Virus record (IMG/VR): IMGVR_UViG_3300035698_024714
Coordinates: 1-27,956 of that record
Source: a virus
Direction: 5' to 3' (one strand)
DNA: 27,956 nt
Shown: in pieces, positions 1,328-9,441 of the stretch
Numbering within the stretch: the first letter of the stretch is position 1
How the letters are laid out: each line of letters starts with the position of its first letter
Translations under genes and position numbers: made by a program
Notes under the pieces: model-generated
What the model saw: the letters and a program-made list of their open reading frames with translations, nothing else
The model's database searches: none
What the model was told of the DNA's origin: nothing

Positions 1328-2302
1328 ATGACAGAACTACACCAATCAGAACTAGAACAGATATACGAACAAGCTACGGCGTTACTAAAAGAAAATAAAA
1401 ATGATAAAAAATGGATAATGAAAAAACTATATATGACTCTAGGTCTACCAGCTTCTGGAAAAAGTACATGGGCTAAAGAGATGCAAATTAAAGATCCCAA
1501 CATAGTTAGGGTTAATAAAGATGATCTAAGGGCTATGCTCCATAATGGCAAACACACAAGGGGTAATGAAAAACAAGTGCTGAGAATGCGTGATCAAATA
1601 ATTGTTGATAGCTTAAAATTGGGCAAAGATGTTATTGTTGATGATACAAACTTTCACCCTCCACACGAAGTTAAATTAAAAGAACTTGCGGTAAAACATA
1701 ATGCGAAATTTAAAATAATAGATTTTACTGATATCCCACTAAATAAATGTATTGAAAATGATTTAAAAAGACCAAAATCAGTCGGTGCTAAAATAATTAA
1801 AGAAATGCACAAAAAATACATAAAAGGTGAAGTAGAAAGAGGCAACCCATTAAATCCTCTAGTGTTTGATAAAGATTTGCCATACTGTTTTATTGTGGAT
1901 CTTGATGGAACTTTAGCTCACATTCATGACAGAAGCCCCTTTGATGGAAAGTCATGTGCTTCAGATTTACCAAATAGTAGTGTAATACAGCTTGTTAATC
2001 ATCTTTATGAAGAAGATGGATCTGGGTATAGAGTAATATTATTTTCAGGAAGAAATGGTGAGTCGGAGCCAGAAACAATAGAGTGGCTTAAAAAAAACAA
2101 GATAAAATACCACGAACTACATATGAGAAAACCAGGAGATATGAGGAAAGACTTAGTTGTTAAAAAAGAAATGCTCGACACATTTATAAAAGACAAATAT
2201 AATGTTGTTGGTGTAATAGATGATAGAAAACAAGTAAAGAGAATGTGGGTTGAAAACGGATTGACAGTTTTTGATGTTAATCAAAATGATGTTGAATTTT
2301 AA
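1328..2302 (+). CDS. pseT: Polynucleotide 5'-kinase / 3'-phosphatase (T4 Pnkp-like)
   Basis: This is a two-domain RNA/DNA end-healing enzyme. The N-terminal kinase has P-loop GLPASGKST (39-47) and NKDDLR (63-68), matching the NRDD..R active-site segment of T4 Pnkp. The C-terminal HAD phosphatase has DLDGT (191-195), an LFSGR motif near 237-241 and DDRKQVKRMW near the end. Domain order and length match T4 Pnkp (301 residues), plus about 30 extra N-terminal residues; ATG 1418 (residue 31) would give a T4-like start. In T4 this enzyme repairs tRNAs cut by host anticodon nucleases, together with an RNA ligase. No ligase is seen in the window. The gene directly precedes an island of tRNAs, tRNA-like RNAs and a tmRNA, which supports a tRNA-repair role. 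Confidence 0.93.
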   Translation: MTELHQSELEQIYEQATALLKENKNDKKWIMKKLYMTLGLPASGKSTWAKEMQIKDPNIVRVNKDDLRAMLHNGKHTRGNEKQVLRMRDQIIVDSLKLGKDVIVDDTNFHPPHEVKLKELAVKHNAKFKIIDFTDIPLNKCIENDLKRPKSVGAKIIKEMHKKYIKGEVERGNPLNPLVFDKDLPYCFIVDLDGTLAHIHDRSPFDGKSCASDLPNSSVIQLVNHLYEEDGSGYRVILFSGRNGESEPETIEWLKKNKIKYHELHMRKPGDMRKDLVVKKEMLDTFIKDKYNVVGVIDDRKQVKRMWVENGLTVFDVNQNDVEF

Positions 2303-2310
2303 ACTAATTA

Positions 2311-2339
2311 TTGACAAATATTAGTTTATAGAATAAAAT
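2311..2339 (+). promoter_or_regulatory. Strong sigma70-type promoter
   Basis: TTGACA (2311-2316) and TAAAAT (2334-2339) are separated by 17 bases, close to the bacterial consensus. It lies 8 bases after the Pnkp stop and faces the Arg-rich mini-ORF and the two tRNA-like genes, so it probably drives the RNA island. Confidence 0.7.
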
Positions 2340-2373: not shown

Positions 2374-2463
2374 ATGCCGTACTCTAAAGCATGGGCTTTG
2401 AAGGTTCAGTATGATGCTGTAAAACGCTTACGAAGTTATACTCGTCGTCGTCGTCGTCGCTGA
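2374..2463 (+). CDS. Possible 29-residue Arg-rich peptide
   Basis: An ORF from ATG 2374 to TGA 2461-2463 encodes a peptide whose last six residues are all arginine, written CGT five times and then CGC. Arg elsewhere in the window is nearly always AGA, so this segment has foreign codon use. The first residues read MPYSKAWALK. There is only a weak AGG about 10 bases upstream of the ATG. A strong promoter sits just before it. It could be a small basic nucleic-acid-binding peptide, or it may be untranslated: the same bases form short hairpins (AAAGC/GCTTT around 2387-2400) and could belong to a leader or noncoding RNA. I do not recognise a family. Confidence 0.3.
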   Translation: MPYSKAWALKVQYDAVKRLRSYTRRRRRR

Positions 2464-2572
2464 TTTTATATCTTTGTCGTAACCCTTGGAGAAATCTGGG
2501 GGTTTTCTGTAAATTAAAAAAAGGAATATATGAAAGATGGAACACAAGCAGGTATTTAATAGAATATTAAAT

Positions 2573-2748
2573 GAGAGAGTGGCGGAAGTAGTAGACGCAA
2601 GAATGACTAGAGGAAACATGAAAACTCATAAAACCATGTCATTAGAGTAGTTATCTAATTATGCAAGGTGGAGGCAACTGTAAAATCAGAAGGTGAGAGC
2701 CAATATAATAGGCGTTGAAATGCGATCAGGGAATCCTTGCCTCTCTCA
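2573..2748 (+). tRNA. Aberrant tRNA-Leu-like gene with insertions in the anticodon and T arms
   Basis: The 5' part is a near-perfect tRNA-Leu start: acceptor GAGAGAG (2573-2579), then TG and a leucine-type D arm ending in GTAGACGC (2591-2598). The matching acceptor strand CTCTCTC (2741-2747) with discriminator A lies 162 bases downstream. AATGAC (2602-2607) can pair with GTCATT (2638-2643) as an anticodon stem, but the loop is 30 bases, not 7. AGA/TCT (2644-2654) could be the variable arm. GCAAGG (2663-2668) pairs with CCTTGC (2735-2740) as a T stem enclosing 66 bases instead of 7, with no TTCRAAT loop. No anticodon can be assigned. It may be an intron-bearing, degenerate or repurposed tRNA; the insertions are far too short for group I introns. 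Confidence 0.55.
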
Positions 2749-2765
2749 TTTAGTGTTTTATATAA

Positions 2766-2860
2766 GGTTGGGTAGCTCAATGGATAGAGCGCTTGCAGAT
2801 ATCACCCATTAAGCTGATGGGGGCGACAAGAGGCTATTGGTTCAAATCCAATCCCATCCT
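2766..2860 (+). tRNA. tRNA-like gene with an enlarged anticodon arm
   Basis: Most tRNA parts are clear: acceptor GGTTGGG (2766-2772) against CCCATCC (2853-2859, one mismatch), a normal D arm GCTC-AATGGATA-GAGC of the type common in tRNA-Arg, and a perfect T arm ATTGG-TTCAAAT-CCAAT (2836-2852). Between D and T arms, CTTG and CAAG pair as the base of the anticodon stem, but they enclose about 31 bases. Inside is a second stem CCCAT/ATGGG with a seven-base loop TAAGCTG. This is some 22 bases more than normal, and no loop has the usual U33 plus anticodon arrangement. CCA is not encoded. Amino acid identity is unassignable. It sits 17 bases after the other aberrant tRNA-like gene and may share its promoter. 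Confidence 0.6.
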
Positions 2861-3602: not shown

Positions 3603-3906
3603 ACCTAAAAATTTTGAAGAAGCTGTTGAAATAATAATGAAAGAATCAACTGGGATGCTTGTTAAAAAAGGAAAAGACTACGGAAGAGACAATATAAACA
3701 TATTTGGTCTTCAAGGAGTAGTTGTAAGACTATCAGATAAAATAATGAGATTAAAACAATTCTTATTTGGAAATCACACATATAGCTATGAAAGTCTCGA
3801 TGATACAATCGATGATACCATTGGCTATGCAATATTGGCAAAAATGCAAAGTTTAAAGACAGCGGACGGCGATGTATGGTATAATTTACCATTCAGGAAG
3901 GACTAA
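3592..3906 (+). CDS. DUF1599-like protein (nucleotide modification associated domain 1)
   Basis: About 104 residues. The core KKGKDYG, FGLQGVVVRLSDKIMRLK and then ESLDDTIDDTIGYAIL follows the DUF1599 pattern (KxxDYG, GxxxRxxDKxxRL, ESxxDTxxDxxxYA), a small helical domain named for its link to phage nucleotide modification. Biochemical activity is not established; the acidic residues resemble MazG-type metal-binding nucleotide hydrolases, which is inference. The start at ATG 3592 is chosen because GGAGG lies 8 bases upstream; a TTG at 3577 would add five residues. The last 11 bases, including the TAA, are also the first bases of tRNA-Ser. Confidence 0.7.
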   Translation: MRTEPKNFEEAVEIIMKESTGMLVKKGKDYGRDNINIFGLQGVVVRLSDKIMRLKQFLFGNHTYSYESLDDTIDDTIGYAILAKMQSLKTADGDVWYNLPFRKD

Positions 3907-3979
3907 GCATTGGTGAGCTCAGCAGTCTTGAAAACTGTGACTTTATGTCGTAGGGGTTCAAATCCCCTTCCTTCCGCCA
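3896..3979 (+). tRNA. tRNA-Ser(UGA)
   Basis: Acceptor GGAAGGA pairs with TCCTTCC (3969-3975), discriminator G, and CCA is encoded (3977-3979). Anticodon stem GCAGT/ACTGT holds loop CTTGAAA with anticodon TGA. The long variable arm has stem GAC/GTC, as expected for serine. The T arm is AGGGG-TTCAAAT-CCCCT. It reads UCA, a frequent codon in this AT-rich genome. The 5' end lies inside the preceding gene. Confidence 0.95.
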
Positions 3980-3983
3980 CCAC

Positions 3984-4055
3984 GCATCAGTGGTAGATTG
4001 GATATACAACTGCCTGCAAAGCAGTTATATGCGAGTTCGATTCTCGCCTGATGCT
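3984..4055 (+). tRNA. tRNA-Cys(GCA)
   Basis: Acceptor GCATCAG/CTGATGC, anticodon arm ACTGC-CTGCAAA-GCAGT with anticodon GCA, T arm GCGAG-TTCGATT-CTCGC, and discriminator U, the cysteine identity base. CCA is not encoded. It starts four bases after tRNA-Ser, so the two are likely one transcript. Confidence 0.95.
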
Positions 4056-4109
4056 CAATGATAATCAAGGTTTATACCATTCTTTTTTACTAAAGAAGAT
4101 TATCTTAAT

Positions 4110-4433
4110 GGGGATGTACTGATTTGATTTAGTAGCACATTAATATCTGCATGTAGTATGATTCCGCTTTATGGATCAAAAAAACATAAATGCAAAATTT
4201 ATTGAAAAAACAAGAAGCTTAATTGCTTCAGTAAAGAACAAAATCGTTTCAGCAGCTGGCGAGTTCTTTGCTCCAAACACAGCTACTTACGCCTTTTCCT
4301 AAGCGTTAATTAGGAAAAACTTCTCCTACGAAGTAAAACATAGGTGATCGCAGGAAATGATTCGTCATTCTTAAAACATGTAGACGGTATTAATTTGAAA
4401 CTAAAGACGCGACCTCAATAGTCGCCATCTCCA
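4110..4433 (+). ncRNA. ssrA: Transfer-messenger RNA (tmRNA) with its own tag
   Basis: tmRNA rescues stalled ribosomes and adds a degradation tag. The ends form a tRNA-like domain: GGGGATG (4110-4116) pairs with CATCTCC (4426-4432), and GCGAC-CTCAATA-GTCGC (4409-4425) is the T arm. Inside, a frame opens at a likely resume codon GCA (4192) after ATAAAT and stops at TAA 4300-4302. The 36-residue tag begins AKFIEK and ends NTATYAFS, like the small hydrophobic ends (YAFA, YALAA) of known tags. The stop codon lies in a hairpin TTTTCCTAA/TTAGGAAAA, the usual place for tmRNA helix 5. A tag of 36 is long, and the resume codon could lie further in. Pseudoknots were not verified. CCA is not encoded. An inverted repeat GATAATC/GATTATC (4060-4066, 4098-4104) precedes it. 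Confidence 0.88.
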
Positions 4434-4471
4434 CAACTTGCAATATATATTATTTAATTATTAAAAAAAAT

Positions 4472-4702
4472 ATGAAATATAAAATAAAAGACATATTATC
4501 AAGAGGAAACCATCCCCATAACTTAAGGGAAGTTGTTGATATTAAAGATAACTATTACATATTAAAGGTTCTTTCTGAAACAAAAAAAGAGAGAGAATTT
4601 GCAGTAATGGATGACAAATCTTTAATGGTAAATGGTTTTGCTATTACCAGTGTTGAGGACGGAGAACTGGTGGAAGAGAAGCAAGAGAAAATGCCTCTAT
4701 AG
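4472..4702 (+). CDS. Hypothetical protein ending inside tRNA-Thr
   Basis: 76 residues with a likely small beta-rich fold (KYKIKDILSRGNH, then YYILKVLSETK) and an acidic C-terminus. No family recognised. The start follows an A-rich leader with no clear ribosome binding site. The final codons CCTCTATAG form the start of tRNA-Thr, so its stop codon is made by the acceptor stem of the tRNA. It lies between the tmRNA and a tRNA. Confidence 0.6.
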   Translation: MKYKIKDILSRGNHPHNLREVVDIKDNYYILKVLSETKKEREFAVMDDKSLMVNGFAITSVEDGELVEEKQEKMPL

Positions 4703-4765
4703 CTCAGTCGGTAGAGCACCTCACTTGTAATGAGGTTGTCAGAGGTTCGAATCCTCTTAGAGGCT
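4693..4765 (+). tRNA. tRNA-Thr(UGU)
   Basis: Full cloverleaf: acceptor GCCTCTA/TAGAGGC, D arm GCTC-AGTCGGTA-GAGC, anticodon arm CCTCA-CTTGTAA-TGAGG with anticodon TGT, T arm AGAGG-TTCGAAT-CCTCT, discriminator U. CCA is not encoded. It reads ACA, a favoured threonine codon here. Its first ten bases are shared with the upstream gene, and the next gene starts five bases after its end. Confidence 0.96.
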
Positions 4766-4770
4766 CAAAT

Positions 4771-7574: not shown

Positions 7575-7817
7575 ATGAAAGCAATGAATGAATATCTAGT
7601 AATTACTAGAGAAGAATCAAAAGAAGAAGACCTTGGTGGAATCACTATCCCAGATCAACCAAAAGCTTATAATGAACTACTAGTTGGAAAAGTAATGCTT
7701 GCCAATGAAGAATCTATATATAAGAAAAATGATCGAGTAGCATACAGCCAAAGAGAAGTTGAAATATTTGGTGACAATGATGTTATAGAAGAAAAAGCAG
7801 TCAGAATTAAATTATAA
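7575..7817 (+). CDS. groES: GroES-like co-chaperonin
   Basis: 80 residues; bacterial GroES is about 95. The family fold is visible: the first strand around MNEYLVITREE, the mobile loop with GGITIPDQ (the GGI-hydrophobic element that docks on GroEL), GKVMLANEESIYKKNDRVAYSQ, and C-terminal KAVRIKL. The roof loop region is shortened, as in phage co-chaperonins such as T4 gp31. It sits directly upstream of groEL with AAGGA as ribosome binding site. It presumably caps the phage GroEL ring, and may also adapt the host GroEL to bulky phage proteins (inference from T4). Confidence 0.9.
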   Translation: MKAMNEYLVITREESKEEDLGGITIPDQPKAYNELLVGKVMLANEESIYKKNDRVAYSQREVEIFGDNDVIEEKAVRIKL

Positions 7818-7833
7818 AAGAAAAAGGAAATAA

Positions 7834-9441
7834 ATGAACAAAACAAGAATACTATACGATCAAGAAGCTAGAGACGCACTTAAGAATGGTGTTAATAAAG
7901 TAGCTAGAGCAGTTGTTACCACACTGGGTCCAAAGGGACAAAATGTAGCATTATCAACAAGGTATGGTGTGCCTTCTATTGTTCATGACGGAGTATCGGT
8001 TGCGAAAAGAATTTTTCTAGAAGACCCAGCAGAAGATGAGGGTGCTAAGTTAGTTAAAGAAGCAGCTGGAAAAACAAACCAATTAACTGGGGACGGAACT
8101 ACAACAGTAACTCTCCTAACATCAGAGATGGTTAATAGAGGTATGAAGTTTATCTCCTCTGGTGCAAATGGAATGACTGTTAGAAAAGGAATGGAATCAG
8201 CAAAGAAGCAGATTATTTCCAACCTAAGAAATGAATCAAGGGATGTTAAAAAATCAGAATGGGAAAGTATTGCTACTATTTCAGCACAAGATGATGAGAT
8301 AGGATCATTTATTTCTCAGGCTTTTAACTTGGTTGGAACTGAAGGATCTATACAAGTAGAAGAAGGAGCTGGAGATAAAATAGAAATTGAACATAAAGAA
8401 GGATTTAGTTTTGAAGAAGGTTACATGAGTGACTACTTTATTACTGATTATGGAAGATTAAACTGTGTATATGATGATGCAAATATTCTTGTTACAGATA
8501 TTAACATTAATAATATATCCCAATTTAAAGCTATTGCACAGGCATGGAACAAACCAGGTCAGAACAATAAACCGATAATTATAGTTTGTGGTGGAATGAG
8601 TAGTGATATTTTAGCTATAACAGCTACAAATAAACTCAAAGCAGCATTTCCTATTGTTGTAGTAAAAGCTCCAGACCAAGGTGATAGAATGGCTCAAATA
8701 TTAAATGATGTAGCCCTCTTTACTGGAGCAAAAATGATTTCAGCAGAAGCTGGAATGAAATTAAATGAAGTTAAGAACGAGGATTTTGGAATGGTAAAAA
8801 GAGTTGTCGTAGATAAATTCTCAACAACTATCATGGCAGATCCTGAAAAAGAACATGTTGATGCTAGAATAGCAGAAATTAAAACTCAAATGAAAGCAGA
8901 AACTAATGAGTTTAATATTGAATTCCTAAAGAAAAGAATGGCTAAACTTACCAATGGAATAGCTATCCTCTATGTTGGTGGAAAAACAGAGTCAGAAACC
9001 AAGGAAATTAGAGAACGAGTTTATGATGCAGTTGGTGCAACTAGATCAGCGATTGAAGAAGGTGTTGTTTTAGGAGGCGGAATGGCACTCTATAATGCAG
9101 CTACTGAAAATGTAACAACTAGCGATTCAGCAGAAGATGATTTTTCATTCGGAGCAAAACTGGTTATAGATTCTTGTTTAATGCCAATGAGAAAACTTAT
9201 CGAAAATTGTGGAGATGATGCAGGACAAATGGTTGAAAGAATACAATCAATAAATGCTGCTGACAAAAGCTCAAGTTGGGGTTATAATGCTTACACATCA
9301 GAAATCTGTGATCTAAATGAAAAAAACATATTAGACCCATTTAAAGTTGTTAGGGTAGCATTAGAAAATTCAGTTTCAGTCGCAGGATCAATATTAACAA
9401 CCGCATGTTTAATTGTGGATATAGAAGAGGAAAAAATATAA
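7834..9441 (+). CDS. groEL: GroEL-like group I chaperonin
   Basis: 535 residues, close to the full 540-550. Equatorial ATP-site motifs are intact: TTLGPKGQNVAL (29-40), HDGVSVAKRIFLEDP, TGDGTTTVTLL (about 86-96), and DAVGATRSAIEEGVVLGGGMAL with the catalytic Asp at the start of that block. The apical domain is present in between. The C-terminus stops at VDIEEEKI and lacks the GGM-repeat tail of bacterial GroEL, as some phage versions do. It should form an ATP-driven folding ring with the GroES encoded just upstream. Ribosome binding site is AAGGA. The gene overlaps the SPFH gene by one base (TAATG). Phage groEL genes are uncommon; having both subunits suggests a self-contained system. Confidence 0.95.
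   Translation: MNKTRILYDQEARDALKNGVNKVARAVVTTLGPKGQNVALSTRYGVPSIVHDGVSVAKRIFLEDPAEDEGAKLVKEAAGKTNQLTGDGTTTVTLLTSEMVNRGMKFISSGANGMTVRKGMESAKKQIISNLRNESRDVKKSEWESIATISAQDDEIGSFISQAFNLVGTEGSIQVEEGAGDKIEIEHKEGFSFEEGYMSDYFITDYGRLNCVYDDANILVTDININNISQFKAIAQAWNKPGQNNKPIIIVCGGMSSDILAITATNKLKAAFPIVVVKAPDQGDRMAQILNDVALFTGAKMISAEAGMKLNEVKNEDFGMVKRVVVDKFSTTIMADPEKEHVDARIAEIKTQMKAETNEFNIEFLKKRMAKLTNGIAILYVGGKTESETKEIRERVYDAVGATRSAIEEGVVLGGGMALYNAATENVTTSDSAEDDFSFGAKLVIDSCLMPMRKLIENCGDDAGQMVERIQSINAADKSSSWGYNAYTSEICDLNEKNILDPFKVVRVALENSVSVAGSILTTACLIVDIEEEKI

What the first reader, a model, noticed from the sequence alone, without database searches (positions are those of the whole stretch)
2573..2860. Two adjacent tRNA-like genes with rebuilt anticodon arms, next to a tRNA-repair kinase
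Both genes keep good acceptor and D arms, and the second keeps a perfect T arm. The anticodon arm is enlarged in both (30-base loop; about 31 enclosed bases with a nested hairpin), and no anticodon can be read. The first also has a 66-base T-loop. The three normal tRNAs nearby show that the phage maintains canonical tRNAs, so decay of only these two, in the same arm, is striking. They lie just after a T4 Pnkp-like gene and a strong promoter. One possibility is that they are decoys or nuclease-resistant mimics that occupy tRNA-targeting defence enzymes; another is that they carry small unrecognised introns.
Basis: partly seen in the sequence, partly recalled or inferred. Interest (0 to 1): 0.8.

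Follow-up and report, generated by a model that had tools for sequence, protein, structure and literature searches.

The report
Phage tRNA-like genes lacking an anticodon
Two neighbouring genes in this virus keep most of the shape of a transfer RNA but have lost the part that reads the genetic code; similar anticodon-less tRNA look-alikes turn out to be common in viruses of bacteria, some carry several in one genome, and what they do is unknown.

Summary
Element 2 (2766-2860) is an Arg-like tRNA (Rfam tRNA, 50.6 bits) whose anticodon arm encloses 31 nt with a nested hairpin; no single excision restores a decoding loop. Element 1 (2573-2748) is missed by Rfam and ARAGORN, but its Leu-type D arm (17/19) and 20-bp closing stem exceed every shuffle. 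Its T loop is 66 nt. No relative of either was found, so neither can be tested for compensatory change directly. The kind is not rare. Two pattern scans of viral contigs each hit their limit of 120 stretches; most have intact acceptor stems, which the patterns did not demand. In arms without an ordinary anticodon, U33 falls to chance (19/75, against 30/33 in ordinary tRNAs). The class-I pattern finds none in 299 Pseudomonadota genomes and only two false hits in 287 Patescibacteria. One phage contig carries six copies of one Leu-like scaffold with six different inserts. The phiC31 family keeps an anticodon-less arm through compensatory changes. Aeromonas T4-like phages instead carry a true intron-like insert after UCU; one relative has the ordinary tRNA. 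Best reading: non-decoding tRNA-like RNAs (element 2 firmly by anatomy, element 1 probably). The decoy function remains unproven.

The parts
2573..2748 (+). Element 1: Leu-like tRNA-like gene (acceptor, D arm, enlarged anticodon arm, variable-like hairpin, T-like stem with a 66-nt loop, A73)
   Evidence: not detected by Rfam or ARAGORN
2559..2761 (+). Extended closing stem of element 1 (arms 2559-2579 and 2741-2761, 86% Watson-Crick complementary, 20 bp with G-U)
   Evidence: 21 bp against 10-14 in shuffles
2602..2643 (+). Element 1 anticodon-like arm: AATGAC / 30-nt loop with ATGA..TCAT hairpin / GTCATT; no U33 plus cognate Leu anticodon in any register
2663..2740 (+). Element 1 T-like stem GCAAGG/CCTTGC with a 66-nt loop (consensus T loop absent)
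   Evidence: direct reading
2766..2860 (+). Element 2: Arg-like tRNA-like gene with rebuilt anticodon arm, U73 then C74
   Evidence: Rfam RF00005 50.6 bits; ARAGORN tRNA-???; D arm matches phage tRNA-Arg genes
2792..2830 (+). Element 2 rebuilt arm: CTTG [CAGATATCA] CCCAT-TAAGCTG-ATGGG [GGCGA] CAAG
2311..2339 (+). sigma-70-like promoter TTGACA-17-TAAAAT upstream of both elements
   Evidence: 11 of 12 matches; number of sites in the region at chance level
1328..2302 (+). PNKP-like kinase/phosphatase gene (neighbour; not shown to be functionally linked)
   Evidence: adjacency not a feature of the class
3896..3979 (+). ordinary tRNA-Ser(UGA), comparison
3984..4056 (+). ordinary tRNA-Cys(GCA), comparison
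4693..4766 (+). ordinary tRNA-Thr(UGU), comparison

Best explanation
Element 2, and more tentatively element 1, are non-decoding tRNA-like RNAs. They descend from tRNA genes (Arg-like and Leu-like) and keep the acceptor, D and (in element 2) T arms, so that transcripts should fold, be trimmed and persist like tRNAs. The anticodon arm has been replaced by another structured arm. They belong to a widespread, heterogeneous kind of phage RNA in which a tRNA body carries a variable insert in place of the anticodon loop. Shown here: the anatomy, the loss of U33 and anticodon, the recurrence in viruses, and conservation of such an arm in the phiC31 family. Inferred: tRNA-like maturation and stability. 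Guessed: the insert engages or misleads a tRNA-handling enzyme of the host, such as a tRNA-targeting defence nuclease; leucylation of the Leu-type bodies is also possible because LeuRS does not read the anticodon.
For: Anatomy and significance. No single excision gives a canonical loop for element 2. Class-I-body pattern: at least 120 viral stretches, 93 of 117 distinct middles with 6-7/7 acceptor pairs, although the pattern does not fix the acceptor. U33 in 19/75 against 30/33 in ordinary tRNAs of the same loci, while the 27-31/39-43 stem is fully paired in 27/75 against a 4.4% null. Leu-body pattern: at least 120 stretches, 98 of 115 distinct middles with 7/7 acceptor pairs. Sixty-three distinct inserts on one AGTCAGG/CCTGACT scaffold. 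Six copies with six different inserts in one 62-kb contig beside 26 ordinary tRNAs. phiC31 family: 99% of cells paired, 7 pairs with two-sided change against 0-1 when slid, 3 of them inside the enlarged arm; inner hairpin capped by GNRA or UUCG. Payload helix with seven two-sided changes in the L254/L262/L291/L339 family. Rare in chromosomes.
Against: No relative of either window element was found, so selection on them is not shown directly; the tools may also withhold very near records. Their inserts resemble none of 210 others. Element 1 has neither a consensus T loop nor C74, and element 2 has an acceptor mismatch; both are compatible with decay. Leu-type inserts as a set are hardly more structured than control DNA (mean z -0.48 against -0.26). 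No expression data exist for any of them.
Confidence: 0.5

Rival explanations
1. Both are decaying tRNA pseudogenes of this phage. Former tRNA-Leu and tRNA-Arg genes gained insertions in loops and now drift.
For: No relatives conserve them. Element 1 has lost G18, the T loop and C74; element 2 has U3.U70. Annotators have filed such genes as pseudogenes or other (three pseudo-tRNAs in Aeh1, PMC1524935; 'tRNA-OTHER').
Against: Stems are intact while loops changed. Element 1's closing stem is far longer than chance. Comparable elements elsewhere keep compensatory changes and acceptor pairing, which decay would not.
Confidence: 0.3
2. They are pre-tRNAs with small introns in the anticodon loop (and in the T loop of element 1), removed during infection.
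For: Aeromonas T4-like phages have such inserts: CTTCT + 26-28 nt + AA after the UCU anticodon in PX29, Ah1, avDM12, Aeh1, AsFcp4 and phiWae14, while phiAS5 has the ordinary tRNA-Arg at the same site. A Leu-cognate triplet (UAG or GAG) can be read in element 1 in some registers.
Against: For element 2 no excision gives U33 and R37. For element 1 no register gives U33, R37 and a Leu anticodon together. A T-loop excision would not restore UUCRA (direct reading). U33 is at chance level across the viral set. No group I or II intron family matches.
Confidence: 0.12
3. The elements are attachment sites or scars of integrative elements in tRNA genes.
For: T7-like cyanophages S-TIP37 and S-TIP28 carry a partial tRNA-Leu sequence directly after their integrase.
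Against: No integrase within 500 bp of any of 239 such loci; any integrase in 6/120 class-I-type and 0/119 Leu-type loci. The elements are whole, with both acceptor strands. No integrase was recognised among the window proteins that were scanned; not every ORF was tested.
Confidence: 0.03
4. Assembly artefact or chance fold.
For: Only one metagenomic record is available for the window, and element 1 is invisible to covariance models.
Against: Rfam significance of element 2 and shuffle tests for element 1. The same kind occurs in sequenced phage isolates, for example more than ten Klebsiella jumbo phage records and phiC31 relatives.
Confidence: 0.03

Closest known systems
tmRNA (ssrA)
   Same: Anticodon-less tRNA-like body with acceptor and T arm
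   Different: No tag ORF recognised and far shorter; a separate, recognisable tmRNA lies at 4110-4436
phiC31-family tRNA-like gene between gp13 and gp14 (Vash, Euratis, Lilbooboo 'tRNA-Gly', phiBT1, RemusLoopin and others)
   Same: Class I body with an enlarged arm: outer 4-bp stem, 9-nt and 5-nt internal-loop strands, inner hairpin, no anticodon. Element 2 has the same 4 bp / 9 / 5 layout
   Different: No sequence similarity in the arm; single gene without a tRNA cluster
Leu-like AGTCAGG scaffold RNAs of viral contigs (G592, G621, G622 and others)
   Same: Leu-type D arm, A73, insert in place of the anticodon arm
   Different: Element 1 has another acceptor, a 66-nt T loop and no C74
Intron-like tRNA-Arg(UCU) genes of Aeromonas T4-like phages (PX29, Ah1, Aeh1, AsFcp4)
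   Same: Enlarged, hairpin-forming anticodon arm in a phage tRNA gene
   Different: They keep U33 and the anticodon and become ordinary on excision; the window elements do not
Phage tRNAs with anticodon-loop mutations that resist anticodon nucleases (PMC10264068)
   Same: Altered anticodon loops in phage tRNAs, proposed counter-defence role
   Different: Those keep a decoding loop with point changes; the paper does not mention insertions or decoys

Membership tests
Decoding tRNA | Acceptor, D and T arms | tested here: met
   Element 2: Rfam 50.6 bits. Element 1 only in part: no consensus T arm
Decoding tRNA | 7-nt anticodon loop with U33 and a readable anticodon | tested here: not met
Intron-containing pre-tRNA | Removal of one segment leaves a canonical loop with U33, R37 and cognate anticodon | tested here: not met
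   (positive controls PX29, Ah1 and AsFcp4 pass)
Group I or II intron in tRNA | Covariance-model match to the intron family | tested here: not met
Phage anticodon-less tRNA-like RNA (kind described here) | Paired 7-bp acceptor stem | tested here: met
   Element 1 7/7; element 2 6/7
Phage anticodon-less tRNA-like RNA (kind described here) | Consensus D and T arms | tested here: inconclusive
   Element 2 both; element 1 D arm only
Phage anticodon-less tRNA-like RNA (kind described here) | Closing anticodon-type stem kept, U33 and anticodon gone | tested here: met
   4 bp in element 2, 6 bp in element 1
Phage anticodon-less tRNA-like RNA (kind described here) | Homologues with compensatory changes in the arm | tested here: inconclusive
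   Met in the phiC31 family; no relatives of the window elements found
Phage anticodon-less tRNA-like RNA (kind described here) | Stable processed transcript | not testable with these tools
   No RNA data
tRNA decoy against defence nucleases | Binds or occupies a tRNA-targeting nuclease and protects the phage | not testable with these tools
   Needs experiments

The most novel reading that the evidence does not exclude
Phages commonly encode a hitherto unrecognised kind of RNA: a tRNA body (acceptor, D and T arms, probably chargeable in the Leu type) used as a maturation and stability scaffold that displays a fast-changing RNA payload instead of an anticodon, sometimes as several paralogues with different payloads in one genome. 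It would act against host tRNA-handling or defence factors. The two window elements would be an Arg-bodied and a Leu-bodied example.
Probability: 0.4. Interest if true: 0.92.

Novelty: new variant of a known kind. Interest (0 to 1): 0.76.

Why it matters
Standard annotation labels these genes ordinary tRNA, 'undetermined', 'other' or pseudogene, or misses them. If they are functional, phage tRNA counts and codon-compensation analyses include many RNAs that cannot decode. The function of phage tRNAs, an old open question, would gain a testable non-decoding branch. The phiC31 family gives a laboratory system in which the element can be deleted. The Aeromonas T4-like genes would separately make small-intron tRNA splicing in bacterial viruses testable.

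Tried and rejected
Relatives of the window through PNKP, PD-DEXK and GroEL proteins, through D-arm or body patterns and through a pattern of the rebuilt arm: nothing related. The host is unresolved; RmlA hits scatter over many phyla. Payloads as antisense RNA to their own contig: no excess complementarity (+0.1 nt). Attachment-site hypothesis: no integrases nearby. Shared partner protein near the AGTCAGG scaffolds: none common to more than 8 of 64 loci. AGTCAGG scaffold borrowed from the host: absent from 118 Bacteroidota genomes, the only phylum tried. Rfam families inside payloads: only tRNA is called. Literature search for anticodon-less phage tRNA-like RNAs found nothing matching, but only open-access papers were searched. 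Part of the first viral set is not of this kind: 18 have normal anticodon arms with a long variable region, and some are a tRNA followed by a second fragment.

Full report
WHAT IS THERE. The window is a 27,956-base linear virus record with terminase, portal, GroES/GroEL and other phage genes. Element 2 (2766-2860) is a clear tRNA by covariance model (50.6 bits, gathering 29). Its D arm is like that of phage tRNA-Arg genes, and its T arm and 3' end (U73, C74) match the phage's own Cys and Thr tRNAs. Its anticodon arm, however, is CTTG [CAGATATCA] CCCAT-UAAGCUG-AUGGG [GGCGA] CAAG. Element 1 (2573-2748) is not seen by Rfam (E<=10) or ARAGORN. It nevertheless has a Leu-type D arm (17/19; shuffled windows reach 12-14) and a closing stem that runs on to 20-21 bp (shuffles 10-14). 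Its anticodon-like stem is AAUGAC/GUCAUU with a 30-nt loop, and its T-like stem is GCAAGG/CCUUGC with a 66-nt loop.

INTRONS? I excised every contiguous segment and asked for a canonical 7-nt loop with U33, R37 and an anticodon fitting the body. Element 2 never passes. Element 1 gives Leu triplets only without U33. Three Aeromonas positive controls pass. In that Aeromonas T4-like group, at one site after gp57B (an Acb1 homologue), phiAS5 has an ordinary tRNA-Arg(UCU). PX29, Ah1, avDM12, Aeh1, AsFcp4 and phiWae14 have the same loop CTTCT..AA interrupted by 26-28 nt whose 3' end pairs with the anticodon.

IS THE KIND RECURRENT? The pattern AGCTCA-N5..7-AGAGC-N37..67-GGTTCRAATCC (ordinary spacing about 26) reached the limit of 120 stretches in viral contigs. 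The D and T arms are fixed by the pattern, so their presence means nothing. The acceptor stem and the 27-31/39-43 stem are not fixed: 93 of 117 distinct middles have 6-7 acceptor pairs. Of the 75 elements with such an acceptor that lack an ordinary anticodon arm, 27 have the anticodon-type stem 5/5 paired (4.4% in shuffles), while U33 is at chance (19/75, against 30/33 in ordinary tRNAs of the same loci). The arms are therefore rebuilt, not simply interrupted. A Leu-type pattern also reached 120 stretches, with 98 of 115 distinct middles 7/7 at the acceptor. Controls: the first pattern gives 0 in 299 Pseudomonadota genomes, where the ordinary-length pattern is found in 57 of 60 genomes, and two false hits in 287 Patescibacteria genomes. 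The Leu pattern gives 3 of 198 Bacteroidota genomes, one in a phage-like region and two of unclear setting. So they are strongly, but not exclusively, viral.

A SCAFFOLD WITH VARIABLE PAYLOADS. Sixty-three distinct Leu-type inserts (37-98 nt between the D and T arms) sit on one scaffold, acceptor AGTCAGG/CCTGACT, with A73 in 54 and C74 in 60. Contig G592 (62 kb) has six copies with six different inserts among 26 ordinary tRNAs, G622 (162 kb) has seven D-arm copies and G621 (41 kb) has four; one insert is shared by G592 and G622. Inserts fall into small families. In one of them a 9-bp helix carries seven two-sided changes. Most inserts are singletons, and as a set the Leu inserts are only slightly more foldable than control DNA. 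Rfam names only the tRNA. No integrase is near, no antisense signal appears, no shared partner gene was found, and PNKP is near only 1 of 239.

BEST COMPARATIVE CASE. Isolated phages carry such genes: phiC31 relatives, Microbacterium phage Schubert, Klebsiella jumbo phages ('tRNA-OTHER'), Bacteroides phages BF1-TP2 and BS-TP4. In the phiC31 family, at one site between gp13 and gp14, nine sequences keep an anticodon-less arm with a 4-bp outer stem, 9-nt and 5-nt internal-loop strands and an inner hairpin closed by GNRA or UUCG. The structure is 99% paired, with seven pairs changed on both sides (three in the enlarged arm), against 0-1 when slid; phiBT1 has a shortened arm. Element 2 has the same layout (4 bp, 9, inner hairpin, 5) but no sequence similarity.

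JUDGEMENT. That element 2 is an anticodon-less tRNA-like gene is shown; that it is functional is inferred by analogy with the phiC31 family and the wider set. Element 1 is a real Leu-derived tRNA-like structure but fits the kind less well, and decay is a serious rival. Decoy, mimic or other counter-defence roles, and charging of the Leu type (LeuRS does not read the anticodon; own knowledge), are untested. Earlier genome papers filed such genes as pseudogenes or odd tRNAs (PMC1524935).

Noticed in passing
Its apparent tag is unusually long (36 codons, AKFIEKTRSLIASVKNKIVSAAGEFFAPNTATYAFS) and its T loop is CUCAAUA.
   Followed up: partly
window 2374-2463: Tiny ORF of 29 codons ending in six arginines (MPYSKAWALKVQYDAVKRLRSYTRRRRRR), between the promoter and element 1, with no database test made.
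   Followed up: no
window 7575-9441: Adjacent GroES-like and GroEL genes; GroEL only about 40% identical to those of other phages.
   Followed up: partly
L224, L375-L380 (Aeromonas T4-like phages): Intron-like 26-28-nt inserts directly after the UCU anticodon of tRNA-Arg, with the anticodon paired to the insert's 3' end; phiAS5 (L379) has the ordinary gene at the same site. The tRNA bodies differ between phages while insert features recur. Candidate small introns in bacterial-virus tRNAs.
   Followed up: yes
L357 (G592), L358 (G621), L359-L361 (G622): Several copies per phage contig of one Leu-like scaffold (AGTCAGG/CCTGACT) with different inserts, beside large ordinary tRNA arrays.
   Followed up: yes
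L354, L355 (Bacteroidota genomes): Two related Leu-type genes with a long extended anticodon arm in cellular contigs; unclear whether in mobile elements.
   Followed up: partly
L114, L120, L123, L132, L157, L180, L187, L193: Viral tRNAs with anticodon loop (C/T)TTATAC (UAU anticodon), class I body and an unusually long variable region; a separate recurrent kind.
   Followed up: no
L225 672 (Klebsiella jumbo phage MJ359) and L149 4829: Leu-type D arm with a 94-nt insert and non-consensus T arm, similar in style to window element 1, in an isolated phage.
   Followed up: partly
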